Source: a virus. Taken from it: DNA of 25,859 bases. The translations under genes and the position numbers were made by a program. Within the stretch, counting starts at the first letter, position 1; each line of letters begins with the position of its first letter. The stretch covers positions 1-25,859 of IMG/VR virus record IMGVR_UViG_3300020194_000487; one strand, given 5' to 3'. Below the pieces are notes generated by a model. The model made no database searches and had not been told where the DNA came from. It was given only the letters and a program-made list of their open reading frames with translations. Shown piece after piece: positions 2,811-25,859 of the stretch.

Positions 2811-3815
2811 ATGGCATCATTAGCAGAAATTAGAGCTAAACTTAAAGAGCAAGAAGCCAATACTGGCGGAAACCGAGGACCACAAGGTCCAAACCCAATT
2901 TACCCATTTTGGAATATCAAAGAAGGTGAGAGCGCAACTATGCGTTTCCTACCCGACGGCGATGCATCAAATACTTTCTTTTGGAAAGAGCGTTTGATGA
3001 TTAAACTTCCATTTAGCGGTGTTAAGGGAGATACAGGTAGCAGACCTGTACAAGTGCAAGTACCATGTATGGAAATGTACGGCGATAGCTGTCAAATCTT
3101 ACAGGAAGTACGTGGTTGGTTTAAAGATCCAAGTCTTGAAGATATGGGTCGTAAATATTGGAAAAAACGTTCTTACGTATTCCAAGGATTTGTAACTGAT
3201 AATCCATTAACAGATGATCAAGCACCTGAGAATCCAATCAGACGCTTTATTATTGGTCCGCAAATCTTTCAAATCATTAAGCAGGCACTTATGGATCCTG
3301 ATATGGAAGAATTACCAACAGATTATACTGCTGGTGTTGACTTCCGTCTTAATAAAACATCAAAAGGTGGTTATGCTGATTACGGCACGAGTAATTGGGC
3401 ACGTAGAGAGCGTCCTTTAAATGACGCAGAGATGAATGCCATTAACACGCATGGATTATTTAATCTTAGCGATTTCCTTCCTAAGAAACCAGGCGAAGTT
3501 GAAGTTAAGGTCATGCAGGAAATGTTTGAAGCGTCAGTAGACGGTGAAGCATATGACGCAGATCGTTGGAGTAACTATTTCCGTCCATCAGGTATGGCGG
3601 CTAGAACTGGTGATCCAAATACAGCATCAACTAATGGTACAGCAACGTCTATGACAGCAGCTACTCCAGAAGCACCAGTTGCAGAAACAGCACCGGCAGC
3701 ACCTGCTCCGGCAGCACCAACACCAGAAGCGACACCTGCTCCAGAAGCAGAGTCAGCACCAGCTGGTGACGGCGCAGACATTCTTGCAATGATACGTGCG
3801 AGACAAAATCAATAA
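2811..3815 (+). CDS. 32: Single-stranded DNA binding protein (T4 gp32-like)
   Basis: The protein coats single-stranded DNA during replication, recombination and repair. It has 334 residues; T4 gp32 has 301. Recognisable parts are a basic N-terminal stretch (LAEIRAKLKEQ), the start of the OB-fold core (YPFWNIKEGESATMRFLPDGD, split here as residues 31-51), and core segments around KYWKKRSYVFQGFV and FIIGPQIFQIIKQAL. The T4 zinc site (one His, three Cys) is incomplete: only C86 and C94 are seen nearby. The C-terminus is a long Ala/Pro/Glu linker followed by a short predicted helix, DGADILAMIRARQNQ, in the place where T4 gp32 has its acidic partner-binding tail. AGGAGG stands 7 bases before ATG. 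It heads the recombination block with uvsX and the uvsY-like gene. Confidence 0.92.
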   Translation: MASLAEIRAKLKEQEANTGGNRGPQGPNPIYPFWNIKEGESATMRFLPDGDASNTFFWKERLMIKLPFSGVKGDTGSRPVQVQVPCMEMYGDSCQILQEVRGWFKDPSLEDMGRKYWKKRSYVFQGFVTDNPLTDDQAPENPIRRFIIGPQIFQIIKQALMDPDMEELPTDYTAGVDFRLNKTSKGGYADYGTSNWARRERPLNDAEMNAINTHGLFNLSDFLPKKPGEVEVKVMQEMFEASVDGEAYDADRWSNYFRPSGMAARTGDPNTASTNGTATSMTAATPEAPVAETAPAAPAPAAPTPEATPAPEAESAPAGDGADILAMIRARQNQ

Positions 3816-3869: not shown

Positions 3870-4955
3870 ATGGCTAAATCATTTGACGTTAGTAAGTTCC
3901 GCAAAGACTTAACTAAATCTATCTCAGGCATGAGTAGCGGCTTTAATGATCCTACAGATTGGATCTCAACAGGCTCATATGCACTTAACTATCTTATCAG
4001 TGGCGACTTTCACAAAGGTGTTCCATTAGGTAAAGTAACTGTGTTTGCAGGTGAATCAGGAGCAGGTAAATCTTACTTTTGCTCAGGTAATATTGTAAAA
4101 CACGCACAAGATCAAGGTATCTTTGTAGTACTAATTGACTCAGAGAACGCACTTGATGAATCGTGGCTACAAGCATTAGATGTAGACACGTCAGAAGAAA
4201 AACTACTTAAATTAAACATGTCAATGATTGATGATGTAGCAAAAACTATATCAACATTTATGGCAGATTACAAAGCAATGCCAGAGGAAGATCGTCCAAA
4301 GGTTCTATTTGTAGTTGACTCATTAGGCATGTTACTAACACCTACTGATATTGATCAGTTTAACAAAGGTGATATGAAAGGTGATATGGGTCGTAAGCCT
4401 AAGCAATTGACTGCACTTGTTCGTAACACTGTTAACATGATTGGTAGTTGTAATGTAGGCTTAGTATGTACTAACCACACTTACGCATCGCAGGATATGT
4501 TTGATCCAGATGATAAGATCAGTGGTGGCCAAGGTTTTATCTATGCATCAAGTATTGTTGTTGCAATGAAAAAGATGAAACTAAAAGAAGACGAGTCTGG
4601 TAATAAGATTTCAGAAGTACGTGGTATACGTGCAGGCTGTAAAGTTATGAAAACTCGTTATGCAAAACCGTTTGAAGGCGTACAGGTAAAGATACCATAT
4701 GAAACAGGTATGAATCCTTACAGTGGTCTTATCGAACTGTTTGAAAAACAAAACTTGTTAGTTAAACAAGGGAATAGACTAAAATATATTGATCTTAATG
4801 GTGAAGAACATATTGACTATCGTAAAGCATGGATGTCACCTGATAAGATGAATTTAATTATGTCTGAATACGAGCAAAAAATTGCTCCTGTGGTAAATAC
4901 CGAAGATGATGATGTTGTAGAAGTAACAACTGAAGTCGAACTAACCGAGGAGTAA
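3870..4955 (+). CDS. uvsX: UvsX, RecA-like recombinase
   Basis: UvsX forms filaments on single-stranded DNA and catalyses strand exchange in recombination-dependent replication. The protein has 361 residues; T4 UvsX has about 390. Walker A is GESGAGKS (61-68), LIDSENALDE (89-98) matches the RecA region with the catalytic glutamate, and Walker B is VLFVVD (145-150) followed by SLGMLLTP. The stretch GLVCTNHTY and the later SGGQGFIYASS match loop regions of the family. The C-terminus is strongly acidic (EDDDVVEVTTEVELTEE). AAGGAG (3859-3864) precedes ATG by five bases. It is followed after three bases by the small acidic gene and then by the uvsY-like gene, so recombinase and mediator are co-expressed. 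Confidence 0.95.
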   Translation: MAKSFDVSKFRKDLTKSISGMSSGFNDPTDWISTGSYALNYLISGDFHKGVPLGKVTVFAGESGAGKSYFCSGNIVKHAQDQGIFVVLIDSENALDESWLQALDVDTSEEKLLKLNMSMIDDVAKTISTFMADYKAMPEEDRPKVLFVVDSLGMLLTPTDIDQFNKGDMKGDMGRKPKQLTALVRNTVNMIGSCNVGLVCTNHTYASQDMFDPDDKISGGQGFIYASSIVVAMKKMKLKEDESGNKISEVRGIRAGCKVMKTRYAKPFEGVQVKIPYETGMNPYSGLIELFEKQNLLVKQGNRLKYIDLNGEEHIDYRKAWMSPDKMNLIMSEYEQKIAPVVNTEDDDVVEVTTEVELTEE

Positions 4956-4958: not shown

Positions 4959-5195
4959 ATGGATGAAAGCCAAATCGTCGATACATGGACTTTATTTAAA
5001 GAGTACATTGACAAAAAGAATATTGAAATTGCCGCTGAACGTTTTGTTGATATGTTAGCAGACTATGGTATAGATGATCATACATTAACACAAGTATTAG
5101 GATCTGACAACCACTTAGATGCCGCTATAAACTATTTTTTAGATGTAGATGAAGAAAACTATGCAGACGACGATCCATGGGAAGATGACGAATAA
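4959..5195 (+). CDS. Small acidic conserved phage protein between uvsX and uvsY
   Basis: This 78-residue, strongly acidic protein has a helical body (WTLFKEYIDKKNIEIAAERF) and the tail DEENYADDDPWEDDE. The fold suggests a short helical bundle: the stretch from VDMLADYGIDDHTLTQVLG to LDAAINYFLD reads like two or three helices. I do not recognise a catalytic motif. It starts three bases after the uvsX stop, with a GAGGAG ribosome site inside the end of uvsX. Its stop overlaps the next start by one base (TAATG). The tight coupling to uvsX and the uvsY-like gene suggests a role in recombination or as a DNA-mimicking partner, but this is inference from position only. Confidence 0.8.
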   Translation: MDESQIVDTWTLFKEYIDKKNIEIAAERFVDMLADYGIDDHTLTQVLGSDNHLDAAINYFLDVDEENYADDDPWEDDE

Positions 5196-5650
5196 TGGGT
5201 TGGTATAGTGAAATCTCACGTGACGTATCTAAAATACCAGACGCTGTAGCCCACTTCGATAAAGAACTTATACAAGCTCGTATTGAAGTAAAACTAAAAG
5301 GTAATGTTGAACGTGCAGCGGCAGAAATGCCAGGCATTGTTGAACATAGATTTAACCAACTACAAGAGATCGAAGCTATACTAAACTATTTGAATATTGA
5401 ATTACGTAGACTACGTAGTTCATACTTCAAGAAATATCTTGAAAATTATCAACGAGCTCTGTCTAGTCGTGACGTAGAAAAATACGTTGACGGCGAGGCA
5501 GACGTTGTTGACTATGAAAAGATTATTAATGAATTTGCACTAATGCGTAACAAGTGGTTAGGCTTACTTAAAGGTCTTGATCAAAAGCAATGGCAAATAA
5601 CAAACGTAGTTAAATTACGAGTAGCTGGTATGGAGGACGCAAGTCTGTGA
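5195..5650 (+). CDS. uvsY: UvsY-like recombination mediator
   Basis: UvsY helps load UvsX onto DNA covered by gp32. The protein has 151 residues; T4 UvsY has 137. It is all-helical in appearance, rich in charged residues, without membrane segments. The assignment rests on the resemblance of the C-terminal half (SSRDVEKYVDGEADVV, then NKWLGLLKGLDQKQWQITNV and KLRVAGMED) to the end of T4 UvsY in spacing and pattern, on length, and on its position next to uvsX. The N-terminal half shows little similarity that I can see, and the name could be wrong. It starts at ATG 5195 in a TAATG overlap and ends in the GTGA overlap that begins the glycan cassette. Confidence 0.6.
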   Translation: MGWYSEISRDVSKIPDAVAHFDKELIQARIEVKLKGNVERAAAEMPGIVEHRFNQLQEIEAILNYLNIELRRLRSSYFKKYLENYQRALSSRDVEKYVDGEADVVDYEKIINEFALMRNKWLGLLKGLDQKQWQITNVVKLRVAGMEDASL

Positions 5651-10489: not shown

Positions 10490-11252
10490 AAACCTCACTG
10501 ACGAATATATTAATATGTTTGCTCAAGGCGGAGGTTTGCCTATATATGATTATAATCATGAATTTGAAAAGGGCCCTATAGTAATACGTAGCATGGGAAA
10601 GCGTAAACTTATAGATAGATGTTGGCGCGATAACATAGAATTTTATTATATGGATAGCGGGTACTTTGGCAACTATCCTTGTAAAGTTAATCCTAATGGA
10701 TGGAAACTTTATCATAGAATTGTAAAAAATGATGTTCAACATAACAAGATTATAGAGCGTCCAGCTGATAGATGGTTAGCACTTGGTTTATCATTAAAGG
10801 AAAGACAAAAGAATGGCAAACATATTTTACTTGTTGTGCCAAGCGAAAAGCCATGTAAATTTTATAAATTAGACTTAGAAAGTTGGAAACATCGTACTAT
10901 AAGAGAAATAAAAAAATACACTGACAGACCAATTATTATAAGAGAAAAAACTGACCGCAAACAAAGAGTACACGGTAACACTATATTTGATGCACTAAAA
11001 GATTGCCATGCACTTGTAACATTTCAAAGTATTGCAGCTGTTGAAGCTGTGATGCAAGGTGTCCCTGCATTTACTACAGCACCTACAGCGGCAGATCCTG
11101 TATGTGATAAAGATCTAAGTTTGTTAGAATCTCCAACTATACAGGACAATATGAAAATATGGAAATGGGTGTGCCATTTAGCATACGGACAATTTCATAT
11201 TGATGAACTTAAAAACGGAACAGCATATAGGATTTTAAATGAAAACAGTTAA
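10473..11252 (+). CDS. GT-B-like glycosyltransferase paralogue B, lacking the RPH motif
   Basis: From ATG 10473 this protein has 259 residues. An upstream in-frame ATG at 10410 would add 21 residues read through the end of the previous gene in another frame; I prefer 10473. The C-terminal block TFQSIAAVEAVMQGVPA (183-199) and the tail WVCHLAYGQFHIDELKNG align with the paralogues at 6216, 11239 and 13875. Where they have R-P/A-H this one has IIIREKT (154-160), so a residue usually linked to donor binding or catalysis is missing. It may use another donor, act as a partner for a paralogue, or be inactive. It overlaps the gene on each side (17 and 14 bases). Confidence 0.7.
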   Translation: MICLSKNLTDEYINMFAQGGGLPIYDYNHEFEKGPIVIRSMGKRKLIDRCWRDNIEFYYMDSGYFGNYPCKVNPNGWKLYHRIVKNDVQHNKIIERPADRWLALGLSLKERQKNGKHILLVVPSEKPCKFYKLDLESWKHRTIREIKKYTDRPIIIREKTDRKQRVHGNTIFDALKDCHALVTFQSIAAVEAVMQGVPAFTTAPTAADPVCDKDLSLLESPTIQDNMKIWKWVCHLAYGQFHIDELKNGTAYRILNENS

Positions 11253-12983: not shown

Positions 12984-13897
12984 TGGAATTACCAGTTTGG
13001 AAACCACGTGTGCTATACAATAAAGGTGATGTTATAAAACATGGAGAAAAAGTTTTTGAGTGTGAGCAGAATCATGTTTCAATAGAAGACTTTGATAAAG
13101 GTAGATTTAAACGAATCAAAGCAGATAAATTAACAGACGAACCTAGGGATTTAGAAATGACAAATGGAAAAAAGTTTGCGTTAATTACAAGTATGGATAA
13201 AAGATATTATCAAGAGTCTGGTAAAGCAATGTTACAAAGTTGGAAAAGACATGCTTCTGGATTGGGCACCATGTATTGTTATAACGAACAATTATTTGAT
13301 CCTAAAGTAAAAGGAGTAAAAACAGCTGGCTGGATGTTAGGTGAACAGTTTATTAAGTTTCAACAAAGACATACTAATCATAAAATTAAAGCATTTGCAA
13401 AAAAAGCATTTCCAATTATAGATGCTACAGAAAAATTTTGTGATCATGATAGATTACTATGGGTAGATGCAGATGCTGTGTTTACAGAAAACTTTCCTAG
13501 ATTACTTACTGAACTAATTGCACCCGATGATGTTCTAAGTACACATTTTAGTGTATGGCACGAAAAGAACGGCAAAGAATATCATAGTTGCGAAACAGGA
13601 TTCTTTATTTTAAATTTAAAACATCCTGGTTTTGGACATTTTATGGACTTATATAAAGACATATATTATAATGATAAAGCAGAAGAATACGATTTACGTA
13701 GATTCTACGATGGAGAAGTATACGGAAAGTGTGTTGAAATACTAGAAGCAAAAGGTCATAAAATGATGAACTTAAACACAGGACGCCACAAAACTCCAAT
13801 TAGTAGAAGTTTGCTTGCTCCTTACATAAGTCATTTTAAGGCAGGACTAAAAGAAAGGACTGATTTTTCTGAATATGAAGACGAAGAAGAAGTTTAA
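12983..13897 (+). CDS. GT-A-type glycosyltransferase with N-terminal carbohydrate-binding-like domain
   Basis: This protein has 304 residues in two parts. Residues 5-45 resemble a CBM5/12 (chitin-binding type 3) module: PVWKPRVLYNKGDVIKHGEK, then VFECEQNHVS and FDKGRFKRI, with W6, Y12, G15-D16, F25 and H31 at the usual places. Such modules are common in phage tail and adhesin proteins. Residues 64-300 are a GT-A domain with FALITSMDKRYYQESGKAM, LLWVDADAVF (DAD 162-164), and ETGFFILNLKHPGFG. The module may hold the acceptor glycan. It has a TAATG start. Its acidic tail EDEEEV overlaps the next gene by 23 bases. Confidence 0.8.
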   Translation: MELPVWKPRVLYNKGDVIKHGEKVFECEQNHVSIEDFDKGRFKRIKADKLTDEPRDLEMTNGKKFALITSMDKRYYQESGKAMLQSWKRHASGLGTMYCYNEQLFDPKVKGVKTAGWMLGEQFIKFQQRHTNHKIKAFAKKAFPIIDATEKFCDHDRLLWVDADAVFTENFPRLLTELIAPDDVLSTHFSVWHEKNGKEYHSCETGFFILNLKHPGFGHFMDLYKDIYYNDKAEEYDLRRFYDGEVYGKCVEILEAKGHKMMNLNTGRHKTPISRSLLAPYISHFKAGLKERTDFSEYEDEEEV

Positions 13898-14738
13898 TTT
13901 ACATGAAAGATTTGGTGCTCTCAATAGTAAGCCTGTGTTTGATGCCTTTCACGCTGGTGCTAATGCTCTTGGGCATGATGTTGTTGTTAATGGTGATGAT
14001 GGGATTGATGTTATTTGGAGCGTACTTTGGAACGGTCGCATGGCTGGAAACCAAGCTATATGGGAACAAAATCAACAGCAAAAACGACCAACAATAGTTT
14101 TAGAAGTTGGCGGCATAGTAAGAGGAACAACTTGGAAAGTAGGTCTTAATGGGATTAACAGAGATGCTTACTTTAGCCCCAGTGGTAATAACTCTGATCG
14201 TGTGCGTCTACTCGGCTTACAAGTAAAACCATGGAAATATGATGGCGAATATATTCTAGTATGTGGTCAACATGATAAGAGTTTGCAATGGAAAGATATG
14301 CCATCAATGTCTAATTGGGTATACGATACTATAACATCTATAAGGGCTCAAACGAAACGTCCTATTATATTTAGACCCCATCCAAGGTCTCCGTTACCAT
14401 ATATTGAAAAAGAATTTAAAAATGTATATAGACAAGATCCAAGACATTTACCCGGGACATACGACGACTTTGATATGAAGTTTAAAAACATATGGGCTAC
14501 AGTAAGCTGGTCAAGTAACCCAGGTGTACATAGTATAATTAATGGTGTGCCTGCATTTACAGGTCCAAGTAGTCTTGCATTTGATGTAGCAGAACAAGAC
14601 TTACGCAATATTGAAAATCCTTTATATGGTGACAGGACACAATGGCTTAATGACTATGCTCATACCGAATGGACTACACAAGAAATTTCTCAAGGAATAC
14701 CTATTAAACACTTGACATCTAAGATTAATATGCTATAA
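13875..14738 (+). CDS. GT-B-like glycosyltransferase paralogue D
   Basis: This 287-residue protein is the fourth of the GT-B-like set. Its N-terminus (VFDAFHAGANALGHDVVV, then GIDVIWSVLWNGRMAGN) is the clearest match to KpsS-like capsule proteins. It has IIFRPHP (164-170), SWSSNPGVHSIINGVPAF (211-228) and the tail QWLNDYAHTEWTTQEISQG. PWKYDGEYILVCGQ parallels PYSDGEYILICLQ in paralogue A. The start at 13875 lies inside the previous gene and no nearer in-frame ATG exists. It ends the cassette; its last codons contain the strong promoter for the uvsW block. Confidence 0.78.
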   Translation: MKTKKKFNLHERFGALNSKPVFDAFHAGANALGHDVVVNGDDGIDVIWSVLWNGRMAGNQAIWEQNQQQKRPTIVLEVGGIVRGTTWKVGLNGINRDAYFSPSGNNSDRVRLLGLQVKPWKYDGEYILVCGQHDKSLQWKDMPSMSNWVYDTITSIRAQTKRPIIFRPHPRSPLPYIEKEFKNVYRQDPRHLPGTYDDFDMKFKNIWATVSWSSNPGVHSIINGVPAFTGPSSLAFDVAEQDLRNIENPLYGDRTQWLNDYAHTEWTTQEISQGIPIKHLTSKINML

Positions 14739-14745: not shown

Positions 14746-15987
14746 ATGTTAAAAAATTACATTCATGACAACACAGCAGAAAGTTGCATAGAGATACTAT
14801 CAGGTGTTCATCCTCATCATGACTATGACGGTGTAGATGTAAACAACAACGATAAACATTTGATTATGAGTCTTACAAAGCAAACATTTAAAGGTATTGC
14901 TTATACAGATAGGCAATATGAACTTGTCAAAAGCAAGATATTATTATATAAAAATGTTCTTGAAAACTTAGATATAGATGTTGACAAATGTATTAGTACA
15001 CTACGTAAAGACATTAGGCATATAGACAGGTCAAAATGGATTGGAATACGTGAAATTGATAATGTTAATTATATTGCTGTAAGGTTTACCTTTAACAAAA
15101 AATTAATTTCTGCATTAGAATCTTTAAGAACTAGTGGCATTTCAAAATTAAAATTGCAAAATAATACTGATAACAAAATAAGTTATTATAATTTAAGTGA
15201 AATAAACATTTACAAAATTATTCAAATACTAAAAGATAGAAATTTTAAAATAGAAGATAATATCAATTCTCAATATGAAAAAATAGAAATGATGATGGAA
15301 AACAAAAAAAATTATTTACCCGGTATATATGGATTTAAATTAAAAAATTTAAATGATAAAGCTGTAGACTATATGATAACAGATATTGGAAATGAACCTT
15401 CGCCTGAGAATTTAGCATTGTACAAAGATAGAGATGCACTATACGGCATAGAACATTTTGACGAAGAGGATTTAGAATCAAGTTGTAAAAATCTTACAAC
15501 ATTGAGTCAACGTATTGTTAGAAGATCAGCAACGCAAGTTTTAATTAATCCACAATCTTTTACAATTAATAACATTGCAGAGTCTATATTAGAATTAAAT
15601 AGATATCCGTTGCTAGTATGTTTAGATAGTGAAAGTGATACAGATGACCTAACAACTGTATTTCATAGTTTTAGAAACATTTTTGCAAATGAAGACTTTT
15701 GTGTATTGTATAGAAAAGATAACGACACAACAGAAAATAAGCATTTTAATCAATACATTAAAGAAAACAATTTGAATAATTCACTTGGCAATAACTCAAA
15801 AATAGTGTATACTACACAAGATAAACTAGTAAAAACATTACTAAAAGGTAATTGGAGTCCTAAGTCTGCATTAGTATTTGGTTGCACAAGGCAAGTAAAA
15901 ATTAAAACATACTTAGACGAATTAGATTTAGTTATGTATTATGATACGGATGTTAGTCCGTTTTTAAGAAACATAGAAAAGATTTAA
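14746..15987 (+). CDS. Conserved protein upstream of uvsW, function unknown
   Basis: I do not recognise this 413-residue protein. It has no membrane segment or signal peptide. The sequence is Asn- and Lys-rich with an N-terminal region YIHDNTAESCIEILSGVHPH and a middle rich in charged helices. The last 170 residues look like an alpha/beta fold: YPLLVCLDSESDTDD, ANEDFCVLYRKD, NSKIVYTTQDKLVKTLL and SALVFGCTRQVKIKTY resemble alternating strands and helices of a P-loop-like or helicase-like domain without a Walker A motif. Overlap with uvsW (TAATG at 15985-15989) suggests the two proteins work together. No Shine-Dalgarno sequence precedes ATG 14746, which fits the promoter placement. Confidence 0.8.
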   Translation: MLKNYIHDNTAESCIEILSGVHPHHDYDGVDVNNNDKHLIMSLTKQTFKGIAYTDRQYELVKSKILLYKNVLENLDIDVDKCISTLRKDIRHIDRSKWIGIREIDNVNYIAVRFTFNKKLISALESLRTSGISKLKLQNNTDNKISYYNLSEINIYKIIQILKDRNFKIEDNINSQYEKIEMMMENKKNYLPGIYGFKLKNLNDKAVDYMITDIGNEPSPENLALYKDRDALYGIEHFDEEDLESSCKNLTTLSQRIVRRSATQVLINPQSFTINNIAESILELNRYPLLVCLDSESDTDDLTTVFHSFRNIFANEDFCVLYRKDNDTTENKHFNQYIKENNLNNSLGNNSKIVYTTQDKLVKTLLKGNWSPKSALVFGCTRQVKIKTYLDELDLVMYYDTDVSPFLRNIEKI

Positions 15988-17450
15988 TGGCAACTTGTAG
16001 ATTAATAATTGAAGATGAAGTAAACATCAAACTTGAAGGACTAGAAGTTGATGTACGGCGTAAACTTGCAAACGCATTAAAGTTTGAAGTACCATATGCA
16101 CGTTATATGCCTCAATATAAACTAGGACGTTGGGATGGAAAAGTTGCTTTCTTTGGCATCGGTGGATCAGGATATGTTAATCATCTTGATACTATTTCAG
16201 AAGTGCTTGCAAAAAACAATGTTCAAATAGTTGATATTGAAGACCGACGTCATCCGATTACACTAGACTTAAAACCTATTACAGAACGTTATTGGGCTGA
16301 CCAAGATATACGTTGGCCAAAAGGACATCCTGCAGAAGGAGAAGAAGTTATTCTGCGTGACTATCAAGTTGAAGCAATAAACAACTTTCTACAAAACCCG
16401 CAGAGCTTACAAGAGATTGCAACAGGTGCTGGTAAAACTATTACAACTGCCACACTATCTCATATTACTGAGCCATATGGACGTAGTCTTGTAATTGTGC
16501 CTAACAAATCGCTTGTTACGCAAACAGAAGAAGACTATGTTAATTGTGGGTTAGACGTAGGGGTTTACTTCGGAGACAGGAAAGAGTTAGGTAAGACTCA
16601 CACTATATGCACTTGGCAAAGTTTGAATATTCTTGACAAGAAGCACAAGGACGGTAGCGCAATATTATCGCTTGCTGAATTCCTTGAAGGTGTGAGCACT
16701 ATTATTGTTGACGAAGTACACCAGGCCAAAGCAGAAGTTCTTAAGAACTTGCTCACTCGCAACCTACGTAACGCTCCAATACGTTGGGGACTGACAGGTA
16801 CAGTTCCTAAAGAGAAGTTTGAGTTTGAATCAATTCACGCTTCGTTAGGTCCAGTAATAGGACAGATTAGTGCTAAAGAATTACAAGACAAGGGTGTGCT
16901 GTCAAAGTGCCATGTTAATGTAGTACAACTAATAGATACAGTAGCACACGCAGGATACCAAGAAGAATTAAAATATCTAGTAACAAATCAAGAAAGAATA
17001 AACTATATAGGCAAATTATTAAACAATGTTAAACAATCAGGCAATACACTTATACTTGTAGATAGGATTAGTGCAGGCGAAATGCTACAAGAACTTATAC
17101 CAGACAGTACATTTGTAAAAGGTGATGTAAAATTAAAAGACAGAAAAGATACATATGACGAAATTCAAGAATCTACTAATAAAGTTATTATTGCAACTTA
17201 TGGAGTAGCGGCTGTTGGTATCAACATTCCTAGAATATTTAATTTAGTTTTAATCGAACCAGGCAAATCATTTGTAAGAGTGATACAGTCAATAGGCAGA
17301 GGCGTAAGAAAGGCAAAGGACAAAGACTTCGTTCAAATATGGGATCTTACATCAACATGTAAGTTTGCGAAGCGACATCTGACTCAGCGTAAAAAATTTT
17401 ACAAAGAAGCAGAGTACCCTTTTACAATAGAAAAAGTAGACTGGAATTAA
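15987..17450 (+). CDS. uvsW: UvsW, superfamily 2 DNA/RNA helicase
   Basis: UvsW unwinds branched DNA and R-loops and shifts T4 replication from origin-dependent to recombination-dependent initiation. The protein has 487 residues; T4 UvsW has about 500. The N-terminal 115 residues form the substrate-binding domain (KFEVPYARYMPQYKLGRWDG). Helicase motifs follow: RDYQ (124-127), ATGAGKT (145-151, Walker A), DEVH (242-245, motif II), WGLTGT (motif III) and QSIGRGVRK (motif VI). All key residues are present. It is translated from a TAATG overlap with the unknown gene before it and shares the 14712 promoter. Confidence 0.95.
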   Translation: MATCRLIIEDEVNIKLEGLEVDVRRKLANALKFEVPYARYMPQYKLGRWDGKVAFFGIGGSGYVNHLDTISEVLAKNNVQIVDIEDRRHPITLDLKPITERYWADQDIRWPKGHPAEGEEVILRDYQVEAINNFLQNPQSLQEIATGAGKTITTATLSHITEPYGRSLVIVPNKSLVTQTEEDYVNCGLDVGVYFGDRKELGKTHTICTWQSLNILDKKHKDGSAILSLAEFLEGVSTIIVDEVHQAKAEVLKNLLTRNLRNAPIRWGLTGTVPKEKFEFESIHASLGPVIGQISAKELQDKGVLSKCHVNVVQLIDTVAHAGYQEELKYLVTNQERINYIGKLLNNVKQSGNTLILVDRISAGEMLQELIPDSTFVKGDVKLKDRKDTYDEIQESTNKVIIATYGVAAVGINIPRIFNLVLIEPGKSFVRVIQSIGRGVRKAKDKDFVQIWDLTSTCKFAKRHLTQRKKFYKEAEYPFTIEKVDWN

Positions 17451-18348: not shown

Positions 18349-19071
18349 ATGTTCAATAAACTTTTAGATGGTGTAGACAGGTCACTAGTTACTAAACTAG
18401 TAATCCTACACACACTAGTAATTGCAGTTAGTAATTACCTAGTAACAATTAGATTTGATCTATTCCCAGGTGCAGAGTTGCCCTTGTTTGGATCATTTCC
18501 ATTAGCGGCGGCGGCGTTTACATTTCCGATCGTTGTTGTAGCAACTGACTTAACAGTTAGACTTGTTGGTAAAGAAGCAGGTAGAGCTGTTGTAGCAATG
18601 GCAATCATTCCTGCCATTATTGCATCGGTACTTGTGCTATTAGCACTAGGTGACGAACATGCTTACAGAGTAGGTTTTGCATCAGGTACTGCATACGCAA
18701 TTGGTACTATGCTTGACGTATATGTATTCCAAGCAATTAGAGAACGTTCAAATGCATGGTGGGCGGCACCAGCACTTTCAACTATTGCCGCAAACATCAT
18801 TGACACATATTCATTCTTTTATGTGGCATTTGCAGGCTCGTTAGATGCAGAAGGTAACCTATCATGGATTGGTGCTAACTGGCACGTAGTTGCACAAAAC
18901 AATACACTTACAAAAATTGTAGTTGGACTGATTGTGTTCCTACCAGCTTATGGTTTATTACTTTCATACTTAGGTAAAAAAGTTGCAACAGAACCACTGG
19001 TGCTAAAAGACGAAGTAAAAACAGAAGCACCTAAAAAGCGTGGACGTAAGCCAAAAGCAAAGGCGAAATAA
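18349..19071 (+). CDS. yhhQ: YhhQ/VUT-family queuosine-precursor (7-deazaguanine) transporter
   Basis: This 240-residue inner-membrane protein has about six hydrophobic segments (about 14-34, 47-66, 78-100, 108-127, 140-160, 188-207). The family pattern is seen in FTFPIVVVATDLTVRLVGK (58-75) and in GTMLDVYVF (119-127), WWAAP and IIDTYSFFYVAF. E. coli YhhQ imports preQ0 and preQ1, the precursors of the tRNA base queuosine. Some phages use such bases to modify their own DNA or that of tRNA. The last 13 residues, PKKRGRKPKAKAK, form a basic AT-hook-like tail that is not usual for this family. TAGGAGA (18338-18344) precedes ATG. No other 7-deazaguanine gene is seen in the window. Confidence 0.88.
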   Translation: MFNKLLDGVDRSLVTKLVILHTLVIAVSNYLVTIRFDLFPGAELPLFGSFPLAAAAFTFPIVVVATDLTVRLVGKEAGRAVVAMAIIPAIIASVLVLLALGDEHAYRVGFASGTAYAIGTMLDVYVFQAIRERSNAWWAAPALSTIAANIIDTYSFFYVAFAGSLDAEGNLSWIGANWHVVAQNNTLTKIVVGLIVFLPAYGLLLSYLGKKVATEPLVLKDEVKTEAPKKRGRKPKAKAK

Positions 19072-19849: not shown

Positions 19850-20469
19850 GGTTAGTTACTTTTGGTTGTAGTGTTACATACGGGCAATATCTTCCAGATA
19901 CAACTTGGAAAAAGGACAAAGATATTACTCCTCCTAGTAAATTAGCTTGGCCTGCTATATTAGGGAAAACTTTAAATATACCAGTTTATAATAACGCAAT
20001 ACCAGGAATTGGAAATTACCTTATTACAGATCAAATTACTAATTTTAAATTAGAAGAAAATGATATTGTTATTGTAATGTGGACATACAAAGATAGATAT
20101 GACATAATATATAATAAAAGATATAACAACCTTAGGCTAAGAAAAACTGGATATGAAAAACTATATGAAACTATAGGACCTTGGATAGAAAGTAGAAAAT
20201 CAACTACTGTATTCAGATATTTATATAATGATGTAGATGCATTAATTAGAAATCAACATTATATAAACTATGCAAGATTATATCTCGATACATTCAATAT
20301 AAAACACTTTCATACAAGTTGTTACACTGAAGATTATAAAAATGTTAATGATATAAATGTCAGCAAATTAAGGAAAATAGATACAGCTCTTGATGATTTG
20401 CATCCAGGACCAAAAAGTCATATTGCAATAGCAGATGCAATGTATAATTATATTAAGGAAAAAATATGA
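19846..20469 (+). CDS. SGNH/GDSL-type hydrolase
   Basis: This 207-residue protein has the SGNH signature: GCSVTYG (7-13) with the candidate nucleophile S9, PGIGN as block II glycine, and DDLHP with the candidate D183/H186 pair of block V. The block III asparagine is not obvious; VMWTYKDRYD stands near its expected place. Enzymes of this family remove or transfer acetyl and acyl groups, often on glycans. The lack of a signal peptide points to a cytoplasmic role. It lies between small phage genes and kdsA, coupled to both by ATGA overlaps, so a role in O-acetylation of the surface sugar is plausible but unproven. Confidence 0.78.
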   Translation: MRLVTFGCSVTYGQYLPDTTWKKDKDITPPSKLAWPAILGKTLNIPVYNNAIPGIGNYLITDQITNFKLEENDIVIVMWTYKDRYDIIYNKRYNNLRLRKTGYEKLYETIGPWIESRKSTTVFRYLYNDVDALIRNQHYINYARLYLDTFNIKHFHTSCYTEDYKNVNDINVSKLRKIDTALDDLHPGPKSHIAIADAMYNYIKEKI

Positions 20470-21239
20470 GAATAATAGCAGGACCATGTCAACATGAAAC
20501 ATTAGAATTAAGTTTACAAATCGCAGAAGAATGTAAACGTGTTTGCGATTTACATAACATTGAATATATTTTTAAAGCAAGTTTCGATAAAGCAAACAGA
20601 AGTAGTATGCAAGGTAAACGTGGTGTAGGACTTGGTCAAACACTACAAGCCTTTGAAAAGATCAAAGACAAAACGGGTGTTAAAACGCTTACAGACGTAC
20701 ACACAACACAACAAATAAAAGATATAAGCAATTGGTTCAATCACACTGTAGACGTATTACAGATACCTGCATTTTTGTGTAGACAAACAGACCTTATACA
20801 AGAAGCATGTGCCACAGATAAAATAGTAAATATTAAGAAGGGACAGTTCCTAGCACCTTGGGACGTCAAAGGTATACTATCAAAGACTGAAGGTGCAAAG
20901 GATGTCTGGATAACTGAAAGGGGTACAAGTTTTGGTTACAACACTCTTGTTGTCGATTATACTGGTCTTATGTATATGCTTGACAATTATGATTCCGATA
21001 TTGTGTTTGATGTTACGCACTCTGTCCAAAAACCCGGAGGACTGGGGACTAGTAGCGGCGGGAATCGTGATTACGTGCCTGGGCTCGCTCGTGCTGGGTC
21101 TGCTCTTGGGATCACTTCCTTCTTCATCGAAGTCCACCCTGTGCCTGATGACTCGCCAAGCGATGGTCCAAATATGCTTAGACTAGATAACTTTGAAGGA
21201 GTTGTAGATGACATCGTCCGCTATTCTTATACCAGCTAG
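20466..21239 (+). CDS. kdsA: KdsA, 3-deoxy-D-manno-octulosonate-8-phosphate synthase
   Basis: KdsA joins arabinose-5-phosphate and phosphoenolpyruvate to make Kdo-8-phosphate for LPS or capsule. The 257-residue protein is close to the family's usual size. IIAGPCQHE (3-11), FKASFDKANRSS (36-47), QIPAFLCRQTDL (99-110), VNIKKGQF (121-128), FDVTHSVQ (181-188) and EVHPVPDD plus SDGPNML (222-238) are all family blocks. Cys8, His185, Glu222 and Asp233 fit the metal-dependent class; the metal-free class has Asn in place of the Cys. The stretch 21021-21170 is much richer in G and C than the rest. It has an ATGA start and overlaps kdsB by 32 bases. Confidence 0.93.
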   Translation: MRIIAGPCQHETLELSLQIAEECKRVCDLHNIEYIFKASFDKANRSSMQGKRGVGLGQTLQAFEKIKDKTGVKTLTDVHTTQQIKDISNWFNHTVDVLQIPAFLCRQTDLIQEACATDKIVNIKKGQFLAPWDVKGILSKTEGAKDVWITERGTSFGYNTLVVDYTGLMYMLDNYDSDIVFDVTHSVQKPGGLGTSSGGNRDYVPGLARAGSALGITSFFIEVHPVPDDSPSDGPNMLRLDNFEGVVDDIVRYSYTS

Positions 21240-21891
21240 ATACGGTAGCACACGGTTCGAAGGAAAGCCGCTGTGTATGTTAGATGGTGTTCCTATGATA
21301 AAGCGTGTGTATGACGCTTGTAGTGCGTCTAAGATACCAACATATGTGTTAACAGATGACGAACGTATTGCTAATCTATTTGACAGTCAAAATGTTCTAA
21401 TTGACTATTACCCATATGAAAACGGTACAGAAAGATGTTCTGGTGCATTAAAACAGGATGCTCTTAAAGGCTATGAACATTTTGTGAATGTGCAAGGCGA
21501 TATGCCAGATGTTACAATAGAGATGATAGCAAGATGTTTTGAATGGTTGAAGTCTTATCCAATCAGTACAGTCTGGACAGATATGCCTTTAGAAATGCAA
21601 AACAATCCCGATTCAGTAAAAATGGTTAGAGCAGGTGATCAATGTTTATGGTTCGGTAGAGGTATGACTGGCTATGGACATTGGCACTTAGGTATCTATG
21701 GATATAGACGCGATGCGCTAGAATTATACCATGATTTAGAGATAACTGTAGAAGAAGAAACTGAGAAACTTGAGCAATTACGTTGGTTAAAAAGTGGTTG
21801 GCAAATTGGATGTTCTCATGTATACTTTAAAGGTACAGAGATTAATTCACCAGAGGATGTAGATATATGGCACAAGCAAAACTCCCAATAA
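21208..21891 (+). CDS. kdsB: KdsB, CMP-Kdo synthetase
   Basis: KdsB activates Kdo with CTP to CMP-Kdo, the donor of Kdo transferases. The 227-residue protein has IPARYGSTRFEGKPL (8-22) for nucleotide binding, YVLTDDERI, GTERCSGA (73-80), VNVQGDMPDV (93-102) with the metal-binding aspartate, and GYGHWHLGIYGYRRDAL. The C-terminal SPEDVDIW matches the second metal-site region. E. coli KdsB has 248 residues, so this is slightly short. It overlaps kdsA by 32 bases, and the start fits the position where the family begins. The KdsC phosphatase and KdsD isomerase are not seen in the window. Confidence 0.9.
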   Translation: MTSSAILIPARYGSTRFEGKPLCMLDGVPMIKRVYDACSASKIPTYVLTDDERIANLFDSQNVLIDYYPYENGTERCSGALKQDALKGYEHFVNVQGDMPDVTIEMIARCFEWLKSYPISTVWTDMPLEMQNNPDSVKMVRAGDQCLWFGRGMTGYGHWHLGIYGYRRDALELYHDLEITVEEETEKLEQLRWLKSGWQIGCSHVYFKGTEINSPEDVDIWHKQNSQ

Positions 21892-22334
21892 AAGATATAC
21901 TAGCAGCCATTGATATGAATGCTAAAAGTGTGTGGAAGGAGTTTACTTTAGATGAACGTAAACAGGTGTCATTTTGGCTTCTTAATCGCTATATAAGCGC
22001 CGTACAAGGGTCTGCAGATGATCAAGCACTAGCTGTGTTCAAAACTAATGAATACTATAATAAGCACTTTAACACTATAGGTGTAGGCAAAGAAAACGGA
22101 CATCAAGAACTTATGTGGCAACTGTTATGCATGAGTGGCGCATGGGGCAAGATCAAGTTTCATCCATATATTGGATTTAAGAAAAAAGGTGCAAATAATA
22201 ATGTTGCAATTAAATTATTAGAACGTATACATCCTAACATGAAGCAATTAGAAGTTGAGATGTTAGCCGGCATGTATACAACTAAAGAACTAAAACAACT
22301 TGCTGAAGATTATAATATAGAAAGCAAATTATAA
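21867..22334 (+). CDS. 62: Probable clamp-loader small subunit (T4 gp62-like)
   Basis: gp62 joins gp44 to load the gp45 sliding clamp. This 155-residue protein has the layout seen in marine T4-like gp62: an N-terminal helix (LPIKDILAAID), VWKEFTLDERKQVSFWLLNRYISA, a middle with HQELMWQLLCM and KIKFHPYIGFKKK, and a C-terminal TTKELKQLAEDYNIE. These match the pattern of the family as I recall it, but T4 gp62 itself is too diverged to confirm by eye. gp44 and gp45 are not in the window. The start overlaps kdsB by 25 bases, and TAATG joins it to the oxygenase gene. Confidence 0.6.
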   Translation: MAQAKLPIKDILAAIDMNAKSVWKEFTLDERKQVSFWLLNRYISAVQGSADDQALAVFKTNEYYNKHFNTIGVGKENGHQELMWQLLCMSGAWGKIKFHPYIGFKKKGANNNVAIKLLERIHPNMKQLEVEMLAGMYTTKELKQLAEDYNIESKL

Positions 22335-22978
22335 TGAAATATTATTATAATACATTACCCAACTACGGGGTTTTAGAAATTAAACTAAAACAAACACATA
22401 TAGATTTACTATATTCATATATTAAAGAATCAGCATACGAAGGATATAAGTTTGAAGGCAATACAGTGATATCACATGCCAAAGACAATCAATGGAGTTT
22501 AATTGATCGAGAGGGTATATTTGAAGAAGAAGTCTTAAGGCCTTCTATACAAAAATATGTAGAGCAATGGGGATGGCCATATAAACATAAAACAACACAA
22601 GCACATGACTTTGAATTTAATAGATTTTGGACACGCATTACTACTAGCGACCAATATCAAAGTTTACATGATCATCAAGGTGTGTTTAGTTTTAATATAT
22701 GGTTACAAATACCGACCGACTGGCGTGAAGAACAAGAAGGTGATTTAGGATTTGCACATCCTGATGCTAGTGATTTTATTTTTACATACACTGATACGTT
22801 GGGTACAATAAGAACAAATAATTATAAACTATCTAAGGAAATGGAAGGCACAATGATATTATTTCCTAGTGATTTAAATCACGCTGTGTATCCAAGTTAT
22901 ACAAATCCAAAAGGATATAGAATTAGTGTTTCAGGTGATCTTAGTCTTAGTAGTAATAGAGTGTTAGGTGCAGAATGA
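22334..22978 (+). CDS. 2OG-Fe(II) oxygenase-like protein
   Basis: This 214-residue protein matches the short 2-oxoglutarate/iron oxygenases common in marine T4-like phages. The double-stranded beta-helix is marked by SLHDHQGVFSFNIWLQIP, with candidate metal ligands in HDH (112-114), then LFPSDLNHAVYPSY with H183 and YRISVSGDL with R196 as the likely 2OG-binding arginine. Between them DLGFAHPDASDF holds further polar residues. Hydroxylation of a sugar, protein or nucleic acid is possible; nothing selects one. TAATG and ATGA overlaps tie it to its neighbours. Confidence 0.78.
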   Translation: MKYYYNTLPNYGVLEIKLKQTHIDLLYSYIKESAYEGYKFEGNTVISHAKDNQWSLIDREGIFEEEVLRPSIQKYVEQWGWPYKHKTTQAHDFEFNRFWTRITTSDQYQSLHDHQGVFSFNIWLQIPTDWREEQEGDLGFAHPDASDFIFTYTDTLGTIRTNNYKLSKEMEGTMILFPSDLNHAVYPSYTNPKGYRISVSGDLSLSSNRVLGAE

Positions 22979-23658
22979 GTAAACCCTACGTATGCGAATA
23001 TTGTGGCAATGGTTACACAAGAGAAAAAACTCTTGCTGTGCATATGTGCCAGCCTAAACGTAGAGCATTACAGAAAAATGAAAAGCGTGTACAACTAGGT
23101 ATGTATGCATTTAATCAGTTTTACAAACTAAGTGCAGGTGCAAAGAAAGATAAAACCTACGAAGAATTTTGTAAGTCGCCATACTACAATGCGTTTGTTA
23201 AGTTTGGTAGTTTTGTATCTAATGTAAAACCGTTGTATCCAGAAAAATATATTGACTATGTTGTTACCAGCGGAGTGAAATTAGATCATTGGTGTAGAGA
23301 TGAAATGTATGAAAAGTATGCAATTAATCTTATACAAAAAGAAGGAGTTGAGACAGCACTAGAACGTAGTGTCATGACTATGATGGAATGGGCAGATGAA
23401 AACGAGCCTGCACCCTGGAATCATTATTTTGATCACATAAGTTTAAATAGGGCTGTATGGCATATCAAAGATGGCAAAATGTCTCCTTGGTTATTGTTAA
23501 ATTGTGCAAGCGGAAAAAACATGTTAAGCAAGTTTAATGATGAACAATTACAAATGATATTTCATATAGTGGATCCAACACATTGGGCTATGCGTTTTAA
23601 AAGGCAACAACGTGATGTAGATCTTGTTAAAGAAGTTGTTAAGGAAGCAAACTTATGA
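22975..23658 (+). CDS. Conserved phage protein with N-terminal zinc finger
   Basis: This 227-residue protein has a single N-terminal finger: C7-x2-C10-x12-H23-x-C25, so a C2HC arrangement with an unusually short final spacing, followed by a basic run (QPKRRALQKNEKR). The remaining 200 residues are well conserved in character but have no motif I know; YEEFCKSPYYNAFVKFGSFV, GVKLDHWCRDEMYEKYAI and the Trp-rich HYFDHISLNRAVWHIKDG suggest a helical domain. Similar proteins occur in marine T4-like phages. A nucleic-acid-binding role is a fair inference. It has an ATGA start and an ATGA link to the CysC-like kinase. Confidence 0.8.
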   Translation: MSKPYVCEYCGNGYTREKTLAVHMCQPKRRALQKNEKRVQLGMYAFNQFYKLSAGAKKDKTYEEFCKSPYYNAFVKFGSFVSNVKPLYPEKYIDYVVTSGVKLDHWCRDEMYEKYAINLIQKEGVETALERSVMTMMEWADENEPAPWNHYFDHISLNRAVWHIKDGKMSPWLLLNCASGKNMLSKFNDEQLQMIFHIVDPTHWAMRFKRQQRDVDLVKEVVKEANL

Positions 23659-24080
23659 AAGTATTAATTTTTGGATTACCAGGAAGCGGTAAAACGACAT
23701 TGGCAAAACCCTTTGCAGATTTGATAAATGGTGTGCATATTAATGCAGATGAAGTTAGAAAAAAATATAATGATTGGGACTTTACTAGAGCAGGGCGTAT
23801 AAGACAAGCACAACGTATGAGACATCTAGCGGATGGTGTAGTAATGGCAGGTAAAATAGCTGTTGCTGACTTTGTTTGTCCTACTTATATAACTAGATTA
23901 GAGTTTGATGCAGACTTTACTGTATGGATGGATACAATAAAACAAAGTCCATACGAAGATACTAATGCATTATTTGAAACACCAGACACTGTAGACTATC
24001 ATGTTGCAAAATGGTTTACTGATACTCATCAACAACTTACGCAAGTTGTCGAAACTTGGAGGGAGAGAAATGCCATTTAA
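23655..24080 (+). CDS. Adenylylsulfate-kinase-like P-loop kinase
   Basis: This 141-residue protein opens with VLIFGLPGSGKTTLAK (3-18), a Walker A typical of APS kinases and related small-molecule kinases. HINADEVRKKYNDWDFT and AQRMRHLADGVVMAGKIAV match the acceptor region and the second helical block of CysC, and VADFVCPT matches its strand with the Phe. True CysC proteins are longer, about 200 residues, and the C-terminal part here is reduced. It could phosphorylate APS or a different nucleotide-linked or sugar substrate. The following gene is an HxGH nucleotidyltransferase, so the two may work in one pathway. Confidence 0.78.
   Translation: MKVLIFGLPGSGKTTLAKPFADLINGVHINADEVRKKYNDWDFTRAGRIRQAQRMRHLADGVVMAGKIAVADFVCPTYITRLEFDADFTVWMDTIKQSPYEDTNALFETPDTVDYHVAKWFTDTHQQLTQVVETWRERNAI
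24058..24062 (+). promoter_or_regulatory. Shine-Dalgarno sequence that sets the start at 24070
   Basis: GGAGG lies seven bases before ATG 24070. It is one of the few strong ribosome sites in the second half of the window, and it favours this start over the frame-open codon at 24001, which lies deep in the kinase gene. Confidence 0.6.
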
Positions 24081-24480
24081 TTCTTTTGCACCTACAACAC
24101 AAATGTTAGGTAGATGGCAACCTTGGCATCCGGGACATACAGAATTATTTAAAAGAGCTCTTGCTGAAACCGGACAAGTATGTATTCAAATAAGGACGGT
24201 ACCACAAGACACAGATGCTTCAGGTGGACGTACGATGCTACAAGATGACAATCCTTTTATTGTAGAAGACGTCAAGGAAAATATAAAAAAAGAATTAGCA
24301 AAAGAAGGCTTTACATATAGAGAAGAATATGTTATAATGATAGTTCCTAATATTGTAGATATTAGTTATGGTCGAGGAGTAGGTTATACTTTTACAGAAC
24401 ACGATCTAGGAAAAGACATACATAATATTAGTGCTACTAAAATAAGAAAACAAATGAGAGAGGATGGTAAACTTGCCTGA
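24070..24480 (+). CDS. HxGH nucleotidyltransferase (cytidylyl/adenylyltransferase-like)
   Basis: From ATG 24070 this protein has 136 residues. LGRWQPWHPGHTELFKRAL (13-31) contains the HxGH (20-23) of the nucleotidyltransferase superfamily, with R15 and W16 before it, as in NMN adenylyltransferase-like enzymes. The C-terminal ISATKIRKQM is the second signature (ISxTxxR). It has no extra domain. The overlap with the kinase before it is 11 bases and with the DnaE-like gene after it 17. It could activate a small molecule made by the kinase, or an NAD or sugar precursor; the sequence does not decide. Confidence 0.82.
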   Translation: MPFNSFAPTTQMLGRWQPWHPGHTELFKRALAETGQVCIQIRTVPQDTDASGGRTMLQDDNPFIVEDVKENIKKELAKEGFTYREEYVIMIVPNIVDISYGRGVGYTFTEHDLGKDIHNISATKIRKQMREDGKLA

Positions 24481-25039
24481 TATTGATATAGATTTTGCAG
24501 ACAGAGATATTATTTTAGATAAAATAAATCACAGGATTGCTAGATTAGACTCAGGTAAAAAACACAACACTGGTGTTTATGTTACAGAGTGTCCTCATAA
24601 TCCTATTGATAATATTAGTACTATCGAACACAAGACAGCAGAAGAACGTGGTTACTTTAAATTAGATTTTTTAAATGTGTCAATTTACAAAGACGTAAGA
24701 GATGAGACACATCTAAAAGAACTAATGGAAAGGAAACCAATATGGCAACTACTGGAACACAAGGACTTCGTCGACAAAGTATTTCATCTAAGCGGACACG
24801 ACGATCTATTGAAGCAATTGAAACCTACCTCGGTAGATCAATTGGCGGCAACACTAGCAATAATTCGTCCAGCGAAAAGATATCTAGCAGAAAAGGATTG
24901 GCAGACGATAGCAAACGAAGTTTGGACAAAACCAACAAACGGTGAATATTTTTTTAAAAAAGCACATGCATATGCTTATGCTGTAAGTGTAGTTGTACAT
25001 ATGAATTTGTTATGTGAGCAATACAATGAACAAACTTAA
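24464..25039 (+). CDS. Miniature DnaE-like protein (DNA polymerase III alpha palm motifs)
   Basis: This 191-residue protein carries, in order, five segments found in bacterial DNA polymerase III alpha: PDIDIDF (5-11, with D8 and D10 at the first catalytic pair), HNTGVYV (34-40, matching HTGVHAA), KLDFLNV (66-72, D68 at the third catalytic aspartate, as in KFDFLGL), PTSVDQLAATLAIIRP (121-136, matching the VALFRPGP region), and FKKAHAYAYAVSVVVHMNLL (164-183, matching FNKSHAAAYA). A real polymerase alpha is about 1,100 residues; PHP, thumb, OB and clamp-binding parts are absent. Whether it is catalytic is unknown. Start: ATG 24464, or TTG 24473 just before PDIDIDF. Confidence 0.75.
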   Translation: MVNLPDIDIDFADRDIILDKINHRIARLDSGKKHNTGVYVTECPHNPIDNISTIEHKTAEERGYFKLDFLNVSIYKDVRDETHLKELMERKPIWQLLEHKDFVDKVFHLSGHDDLLKQLKPTSVDQLAATLAIIRPAKRYLAEKDWQTIANEVWTKPTNGEYFFKKAHAYAYAVSVVVHMNLLCEQYNEQT

Positions 25040-25511
25040 GATTCCAAGAACAATTCAATGGAATAGCAAACCAAATAGAAAATATTTTTTAAGACACTTA
25101 ATTGAATCAAATAATTTTAGTACAATGTGCGAAGTAGGAGTTAGAGACGGACGAACTACTTTTTACCTATTAGATAAAATACCTAATTTAAAAATTTATG
25201 CAATTGATTTAGATATTAGACTATTTTATAATAAAGAAATAAAAGAAAAATATAATGAAAGATTAATTCCTATACAAGGAAAAAGCGGCGTTGTTGCTGA
25301 TAAAATACCTAGTGTAGATTTAGTTTTTATAGATGCTGATCATTCTTATCAAGGTTGTAGTATTGATATAAAAGCCTATACACCAAAAGTAAATACTAAT
25401 GGTATATTGTCAGGGCATGATATAGACTTTCCTGGAGTAAACAAGGCAGTTAATGAACAAGTTAAGACATACGAAGTTGGTCCTAACAATGTTTGGTTTA
25501 AATTTATTTAG
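25026..25511 (+). CDS. Class I SAM-dependent methyltransferase (type 24-like)
   Basis: From ATG 25026 this protein has 161 residues; an upstream in-frame GTG at 25014 would add four. EVGVRDGRTTF (36-46) is motif I, YAIDLDIR the strand-2 end, and VDLVFIDADHSYQG (97-110) the hallmark of the Methyltransf_24 group seen in glycan and antibiotic clusters. The final GILSGHDIDFPGVNKAV is also typical. It is the fifth methyltransferase in the window; its substrate is unknown. It overlaps the DnaE-like gene by 14 bases. Its stop lies in an eight-base overlap with the converging minus-strand gene. Confidence 0.82.
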   Translation: MNKLKIPRTIQWNSKPNRKYFLRHLIESNNFSTMCEVGVRDGRTTFYLLDKIPNLKIYAIDLDIRLFYNKEIKEKYNERLIPIQGKSGVVADKIPSVDLVFIDADHSYQGCSIDIKAYTPKVNTNGILSGHDIDFPGVNKAVNEQVKTYEVGPNNVWFKFI

Positions 25512-25859
25512 ATTTTTTTCTGACTAATTGTACACTTTTACGTTTTATTCTTTTAACACTTAATGCGTTTAAATTTACACAAGGGCCAATACTTACTCTA
25601 ACATCTTTGCTGTTCATTGTCATTAAAGCATGATTAAATCTTGATATATCAGTCCTTAGGAATATGTTGATAGGAATCATTCTGTTTGATTCCCACCACC
25701 ATGTATCACCTAATTCAAGGAAACGTTTTTTTTCTTCTTCTGTTTTAAGCAATGTATATATGTACATACTAGTAACATACTGGTCTTGATTGGCAATTAT
25801 ACCAACGTATTCATTACCACCATATGTAACAACGCTTATAAACGGAAAGTCTTTTTCAA
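25504..25859 (-). CDS. Conserved phage protein, 5' part outside window, function unknown
   Basis: On the minus strand this frame is open to the window edge, so the gene starts beyond 25859; 117 residues are visible. An ATG at 25767 is internal, because the sequence before it reads on sensibly (FPFISVVTYGGNEYVGIIAN). Later features are KTEEEKKRFLELGDTWWWES, PINIFLRTDISRFNHALM, and the basic end SVKRIKRKSVQLVRKKSK. I know no function; similar proteins occur in marine T4-like phages. The basic tail hints at nucleic-acid binding. It is the only minus-strand gene in the window and converges on the methyltransferase. Confidence 0.75.
   Translation of the reverse strand, partial: EKDFPFISVVTYGGNEYVGIIANQDQYVTSMYIYTLLKTEEEKKRFLELGDTWWWESNRMIPINIFLRTDISRFNHALMTMNSKDVRVSIGPCVNLNALSVKRIKRKSVQLVRKKSK

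What the first reader, a model, noticed from the sequence alone, without database searches (positions are those of the whole stretch)
24464..25039. A 191-residue C-family (DnaE-type) polymerase relic or minimal palm in a T4-like phage
The protein has PDIDIDF, HNTGVYV, KLDFL, a RP-containing helix and an SH/AH-AAYA-type helix in the same order as in bacterial DNA polymerase III alpha, including the three catalytic aspartates (D8, D10, D68). The distance between the first pair and the third aspartate is about 60 residues, against roughly 150 in E. coli. T4-like phages replicate with a family B polymerase, so this could be a minimal palm with new activity, a decoy for the host replisome, or an assembly partner.
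Basis: partly seen in the sequence, partly recalled or inferred. Interest (0 to 1): 0.78.

Follow-up and report, generated by a model that had tools for sequence, protein, structure and literature searches.

The report
Half of a split phage DNA polymerase
This small phage gene encodes one half of a stripped-down, bacterial-type (DnaE-like) DNA polymerase whose other half is made from a distant gene; the split enzyme was already predicted in giant phages in 2021, and to my knowledge nobody has shown what it does.

Summary
The ORF at 24464-25039 is real and is genuinely related to bacterial DNA polymerase III alpha (family C). It is not a decayed relic and not a complete palm. It belongs to PHROG 11778. 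Iyer et al. 2021 (PMC7824862) already described this family: a minimal, phage-specific Pol III alpha split into two proteins in jumbo phages that also carry a family B polymerase. The window protein is the C-terminal half (metal and template binding).

My tests support the split. An AlphaFold model of this protein aligns to E. coli DnaE 397-784. A model of the other half, from a related phage, aligns to 279-395. The cut falls at one point with no overlap. The two halves occur in the same 59 of 60 listed phage records. They are never fused in the sequences examined, and no intein sequence flanks the junction.

The catalytic aspartates are D6, D8 and D68 (not D8/D10/D68), invariant in 176 distinct sequences; dN/dS is about 0.12. 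The thumb, part of the fingers, the PHP domain and the clamp-binding region are missing. The likely role is a low-processivity helper polymerase for recombination, repair or gap filling. That is inferred, not shown. The partner gene lies outside this 25.9-kb fragment.

The parts
24464..25039 (+). C-terminal half (Mg2+ and template-binding palm plus part of the fingers) of a split minimal Pol III alpha; PHROG 11778 member, 191 aa
24476..24496 (+). PDIDIDF motif; D6 (24479-24481) matches E. coli DnaE D401, D8 (24485-24487) matches D403
   Evidence: invariant in 176/176
24659..24667 (+). K66 and D68, matching DnaE K553 and catalytic D555
   Evidence: invariant in 176/176
24866..24880 (+). R135-P136-x-K138-R139, fingers motif matching DnaE R639-P640
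24953..24967 (+). F164-K165-K166-A-H168, matching DnaE F756-N-K758-S-H760 (incoming nucleotide contact in DnaE by general knowledge)
25504..25857 (-). Convergent conserved neighbour, PHROG 11637, function unknown; cut by the window end. The RaK2 and PA5oct-group copies are the same family; a minus-strand gene holds the same place in most other reference phages
22975..23658 (+). Conserved upstream neighbour, PHROG 11058, zinc-finger-like; homologous to the gene just upstream of the C-half in PAC2 and to RaK2 ORF122
21867..22334 (+). Conserved neighbour, PHROG 11758, homologous to the PAC2 coil-containing gene
2811..3815 (+). gp32-like single-strand DNA-binding protein
3870..4955 (+). UvsX-like recombinase
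5195..5650 (+). UvsY-like recombination mediator
15987..17450 (+). UvsW-like helicase

Best explanation
The protein is the C-terminal half of a minimal family C DNA polymerase that the phage encodes as two separate proteins. SHOWN: it aligns with E. coli DnaE from residue 397 onward; a standalone partner family (PHROG 11127, ~175 aa, GRGSS nucleotide loop) covers DnaE 279-395 and almost always occurs in the same phage genomes; both halves keep the family C catalytic residues under purifying selection. INFERRED: the two proteins assemble without covalent linkage, the partner holding the dNTP triphosphate with its Gly-Ser loop while this protein supplies the two-metal site (D6/D8/D68), K66 and the fingers lysines and grips the template. 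Without thumb, PHP nuclease domain or clamp-binding tail it should be a distributive, low-processivity polymerase. Its place in the gp32-UvsX-UvsY-UvsW / primase-helicase gene cluster suggests repair, recombination-coupled or lagging-strand gap filling, beside a family B replicase carried by nearly all well-covered relatives.
For: Fold: C-half model (pLDDT 92.2) residues 1-190 align to E. coli DnaE 2hnh 397-784, Z 8.8; the top 14 rows are all Pol III alpha/PolC, the next row is Z 3.6. N-half model (pLDDT 89.8) residues 81-179 align to 2hnh 279-395, Z 10.2, rmsd 2.6 A. The two cover adjacent, non-overlapping parts of one DnaE. Sequence: the N-half profile matches DnaE 320-392; C-half profile against Pol III alpha chains E=7e-4 and hhalign probability 89%. 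Phyletic profile: among 50,697 phage records the C-half is in 61 and the N-half in 60, with 59 of 60 listed shared. In 14 viral contigs of 200 kb or more both halves occur in 12, and family B polymerase in 13; all 8 reference phages have all three. None of 145 C-half and 93 N-half ORFs is fused. Residues D6, D8, D10, H34, K66, D68 are 176/176; N-half G-R-G-S 89/89. Median dN/dS 0.12 for the C-half, 0.18 for the N-half (few pairs). Published reading: PMC7824862.
Against: No physical interaction or activity is shown. The fingers arginines R709/R710 of E. coli have no counterpart. One 262-kb relative (G001) lacks the N-half and family B hits, and one 359-kb contig (G030) has the N-half but no C-half hit; both are classed as linear and may be fragments. 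The partner and family B genes were not seen in the window itself (only 25.9 kb).
Confidence: 0.72

Rival explanations
1. The split pair assembles but is not a template-directed polymerase: it is a nucleotidyltransferase with another job (for example end tailing, primer maturation, or protein or nucleotide modification).
For: Thumb and most of the DNA-gripping parts are absent, as is the R709/R710 fingers stretch. The fold class is the broad Pol beta-like nucleotidyltransferase fold (general knowledge).
Against: RPxK(R), FKK-H and the DnaE-type order beyond the metal site are kept, which are fingers/template features of family C, not of generic nucleotidyltransferases; the gene lies in a replication-recombination cluster.
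Confidence: 0.15
2. It is a structural or regulatory subunit of the phage family B replisome (or a partner of a DnaQ-like exonuclease) that keeps the palm fold but no catalysis.
For: A family B polymerase is present in nearly all well-covered genomes. RaK2 has a DnaQ-type exonuclease gene in the same cluster (PF00929 E=7e-12).
Against: Every metal ligand and K66 is invariant in 176 sequences; a purely structural role would not need them.
Confidence: 0.1
3. A relic or a decoy that mimics host DnaE to poison the host replisome.
For: Truncated relative to DnaE; weak similarity to host Pol III alpha.
Against: Purifying selection, invariant active site, conserved partner, none of the clamp, tau or exonuclease binding parts that a decoy would need.
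Confidence: 0.03

Closest known systems
Phage split minimal DNA polymerase III alpha of group 2.2 jumbo phages (Iyer et al. 2021, PMC7824862; PHROG 11778 C-half, PHROG 11127 N-half)
   Same: Same family: standalone Mg2+/template-binding half in T4-like jumbo phages, partner encoded far away, family B polymerase present in relatives.
   Different: Nothing essential. The window belongs to a metagenomic branch (35-51% identical to the reference-phage copies) with a sugar-metabolism gene block in the cluster; the partner is not in this fragment.
Bacterial DNA polymerase III alpha (DnaE) and PolC
   Same: Palm D401/D403/D555, K553, RP and K758-H760 motifs in the same order; same fold by structure comparison.
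   Different: About 190 + 175 residues in two chains against 1160 in one; no thumb, no R709/R710 fingers stretch, no PHP, no clamp-binding or OB region.
Cyanobacterial DnaE split by the Synechocystis-type split intein (general knowledge)
   Same: A DnaE encoded as two distant genes.
   Different: There the cut lies elsewhere and intein halves join the pieces by trans-splicing; here the N-half mostly ends one residue after EFL/EFF and the C-half starts at the DIDID motif, with no intein sequence, so assembly must be non-covalent.
CBB_328 of phage vB_PcaM_CBB (PMC5259590)
   Same: Noted there as a truncated 172-aa Pol III alpha; by length and match it is the N-half partner of this family.
   Different: It is the other half, not this one.

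Membership tests
Family C DNA polymerase (DnaE/PolC) | Catalytic aspartate triad matching E. coli D401, D403, D555 | tested here: met
   D6, D8, D68 by alignment; invariant in 176/176
Family C DNA polymerase (DnaE/PolC) | Gly-Ser nucleotide-binding loop of the palm on the same chain | tested here: not met
   Absent from the window protein; present on the standalone partner family in relatives. So the window protein alone is not a complete family C polymerase.
Family C DNA polymerase (DnaE/PolC) | Fold of the DnaE palm/fingers | tested here: met
   2hnh 397-784, Z 8.8, rmsd 6.0, 181 residues; top 14 rows all Pol III alpha/PolC
Family C DNA polymerase (DnaE/PolC) | Thumb domain | tested here: not met
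   60 residues between D8 and D68 against 152 in E. coli
Family C DNA polymerase (DnaE/PolC) | PHP domain, clamp-binding and OB regions | tested here: not met
   The protein starts at the region matching E. coli 397 and ends at the one matching about 784
Family C DNA polymerase (DnaE/PolC) | Template-directed DNA synthesis | not testable with these tools
   needs biochemistry
Phage split minimal Pol III alpha (PHROG 11778 + 11127; Iyer et al. 2021) | Match to the C-half family | tested here: met
   phrog_11778 E=9.4e-59, residues 6-186
Phage split minimal Pol III alpha (PHROG 11778 + 11127; Iyer et al. 2021) | N-half encoded in the same genome | tested here: inconclusive
   Not in the 25.9-kb window; in relatives 59 of 60 listed phage records and 12 of 14 contigs of 200 kb or more carry both
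Phage split minimal Pol III alpha (PHROG 11778 + 11127; Iyer et al. 2021) | Family B polymerase in the same genome | tested here: inconclusive
   The window pfam scans list none; 8/8 reference phages and 13/14 contigs of 200 kb or more have it
Phage split minimal Pol III alpha (PHROG 11778 + 11127; Iyer et al. 2021) | Gene setting: recombination/replication cluster with PHROG 11637 next to it | tested here: met
Split-intein DnaE (cyanobacterial type) | Intein halves at the junction | tested here: not met
   N-half mostly ends 1 residue after EFL/EFF; C-half starts at the DIDID motif

The most novel reading that the evidence does not exclude
A thumbless, two-chain family C DNA polymerase of about 370 residues, held together without covalent linkage, is an active second DNA polymerase in T4-like jumbo phages, working with a family B replicase; in some marine relatives a further polymerase gene, a compact PHP-less ~550-aa DnaE, lies 5-9 kb downstream.
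Probability: 0.5. Interest if true: 0.72.

Novelty: new member of a known kind. Interest (0 to 1): 0.5.

Why it matters
If the pair is active it would be among the smallest family C polymerases and one whose nucleotide-binding and metal-binding halves are separate proteins, which would show what the bacterial replicase core minimally needs. It would also bear on why phages with a family B replicase keep a bacterial-type polymerase core. The question can be tested directly because cultured phages (RaK2, 121Q, PA5oct, Atu_ph07) carry both genes.

Tried and rejected
Relic: rejected on invariant catalytic residues and dN/dS. Self-contained minimal palm: rejected, the Gly-Ser loop is on the partner. 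Natural N-C fusion: looked for in 145 C-half and 93 N-half ORFs, none. Trans-splicing by split intein: no intein sequence at either end. N-half inside the window: not found. The long ORFs that hit the N-half profile weakly (L108, L109, L138) turned out to be a different, contiguous compact DnaE. A profile comparison of the C-half with the N-half gave nothing, as expected for different regions. A DnaQ-type exonuclease in the window: RaK2 ORF117 has no counterpart among window ORFs. A single-sequence PDB search was too weak to decide. One script ended with an error after printing its main counts. No model coordinates were available, so aspartate distances were not measured. WH_AprA is taken as a chance hit, below its cut-off.

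Full report
THE OBSERVATION. The 191-aa ORF at 24464-25039 is real. It matches PHROG 11778 'DNA polymerase' at E=9e-59 and the long phage DnaE family phrog_405 at E=1.5e-8. Pfam's finger domain hits only weakly and below cut-off, and PF07733 does not hit the single sequence. Hundreds of relatives exist in viral contigs, and 61 records of a 50,697-record phage collection hold it; those listed are almost all jumbo phages (PA5oct group, RaK2, 121Q, GAP32, CBB, Atu_ph07, Phosso, SCTP-2, XacN1).

RESIDUES. Aligned with E. coli DnaE, D6, D8 and D68 match D401, D403 and D555; K66 matches K553, H34 matches H511, R135-P136 match R639-P640, and K166/H168 match K758/H760. That D401, D403 and D555 are the catalytic residues of DnaE is general knowledge. 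Over 176 distinct relatives D6, D8, D10, H34, G37, K66 and D68 never vary. Median dN/dS is 0.12 over 110 pairs (synonymous sites are near saturation, so this is a rough figure). This is not a relic.

THE OTHER HALF. Iyer et al. 2021 (PMC7824862) reported that group 2.2 jumbo phages have a family B polymerase plus a minimal Pol III alpha split into an N-terminal NTP-binding and a C-terminal Mg2+/template-binding protein encoded by distant genes. The N-half is present in all eight reference phages tested and is PHROG 11127. It carries the invariant GRGS loop (89/89) and mostly ends one residue after the EFL/EFF that matches ERFL shortly before PDFDVDF in DnaE. The CBB paper had noticed a truncated 172-aa alpha, which by length and match is this half (PMC5259590).

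TEST OF THE SPLIT. Structure models were made for the window protein (pLDDT 92.2) and for an N-half from a viral contig that carries both halves (pLDDT 89.8). Compared with solved structures, the C-half covers E. coli DnaE 397-784 (Z 8.8, rmsd 6.0, 181 residues; top 14 rows are all Pol III alpha/PolC, the next Z 3.6). Residues 81-179 of the N-half cover 279-395 (Z 10.2, rmsd 2.6, 99 residues). The two proteins therefore tile one DnaE core with the cut at 395/397. None of 145 C-half and 93 N-half ORFs is fused.

CO-OCCURRENCE. In the phage collection the C-half is in 61 records and the N-half in 60; of the 60 listed for each, 59 are shared. The one listed C-only record is a 109-kb record; the one N-only record (RAS14) is probably the 61st, unlisted C record. 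Many of these records are close relatives, so the number of independent lineages is perhaps ten. Among 14 contigs of 200 kb or more, both halves are in 12 and family B in 13. The exceptions are G001 (262 kb: no N-half, no family B) and G030 (359 kb: no C-half hit).

SETTING. The window carries a terminase piece, gp32, UvsX, UvsY and UvsW, then PHROG 11758, PHROG 11058, the C-half and the convergent PHROG 11637 gene. The same families surround the C-half in PAC2 and RaK2, followed by primase and helicase genes. The window is a 25.9-kb fragment, so absence of the N-half and of a family B polymerase from it says little.

HOW IT PROBABLY WORKS. Shown: family, split, co-occurrence, constraint. Inferred: non-covalent assembly, dNTP held by the partner's Gly-Ser loop, metals held by this half, low processivity because thumb, PHP, clamp-binding region and the R709/R710 fingers stretch are missing. 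The helper role in recombination, repair or gap filling rests on gene neighbourhood only.

NOVELTY. The family and the split idea are published; what is added here is the structural test of complementarity, the residue correction, the phyletic profile, and its spread in viral contigs. I found no experimental study in the held library, which lacks most subscription journals. A side finding is a compact PHP-less DnaE 5-9 kb downstream of the C-half in part of the marine relatives.

Noticed in passing
L108:1492-3180 (+), L109:3-1262 (-), L138:10833-12206 (+); also L306-L385: A different, contiguous compact DnaE (~550 aa; PF07733 E=1e-42 plus fingers, no PHP) lies 5-9 kb downstream of the C-half in part of the marine relatives; 308 related loci in viral contigs, and 22 of the 80 fetched loci show the C-half upstream. 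Patchy: absent from many contigs with the C-half. No separate N-half seen on the 17 (partial) contigs searched, and no family B exonuclease domain.
   Followed up: partly
23655-24080 and 24001-24480 (+): Two overlapping ORFs match successive halves (3-115 and 118-228) of one 230-aa family, phrog_10255 (kinase / nucleotidyltransferase): a second gene that is split in this window.
   Followed up: no
5647-14738 (+): Block of methyltransferases, glycosyltransferases, a cytidylyltransferase/mannose-6-phosphate-isomerase-type protein and a CBM_5_12 protein between UvsY and UvsW, where reference phages have few genes.
   Followed up: no
20466-21239 and 21208-21891 (+): Adjacent DAHP-synthase-family and CTP_transf_3 genes, which look like a KDO or related acidic-sugar activation pair (KdsA/KdsB-like, from family names only).
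   Followed up: no
18349-19071 (+): Vut_1 (PF02592) membrane transporter family, known elsewhere as queuosine-precursor transporters (general knowledge), in a phage.
   Followed up: no
25014-25511 (+): A methyltransferase (Methyltransf_24) gene sits between the C-half and the otherwise adjacent PHROG 11637 gene.
   Followed up: no
L083:2625-3443 (+): RaK2 has a DnaQ-type exonuclease (PF00929) between UvsX and UvsW in the same cluster; no homologue among the window ORFs.
   Followed up: partly
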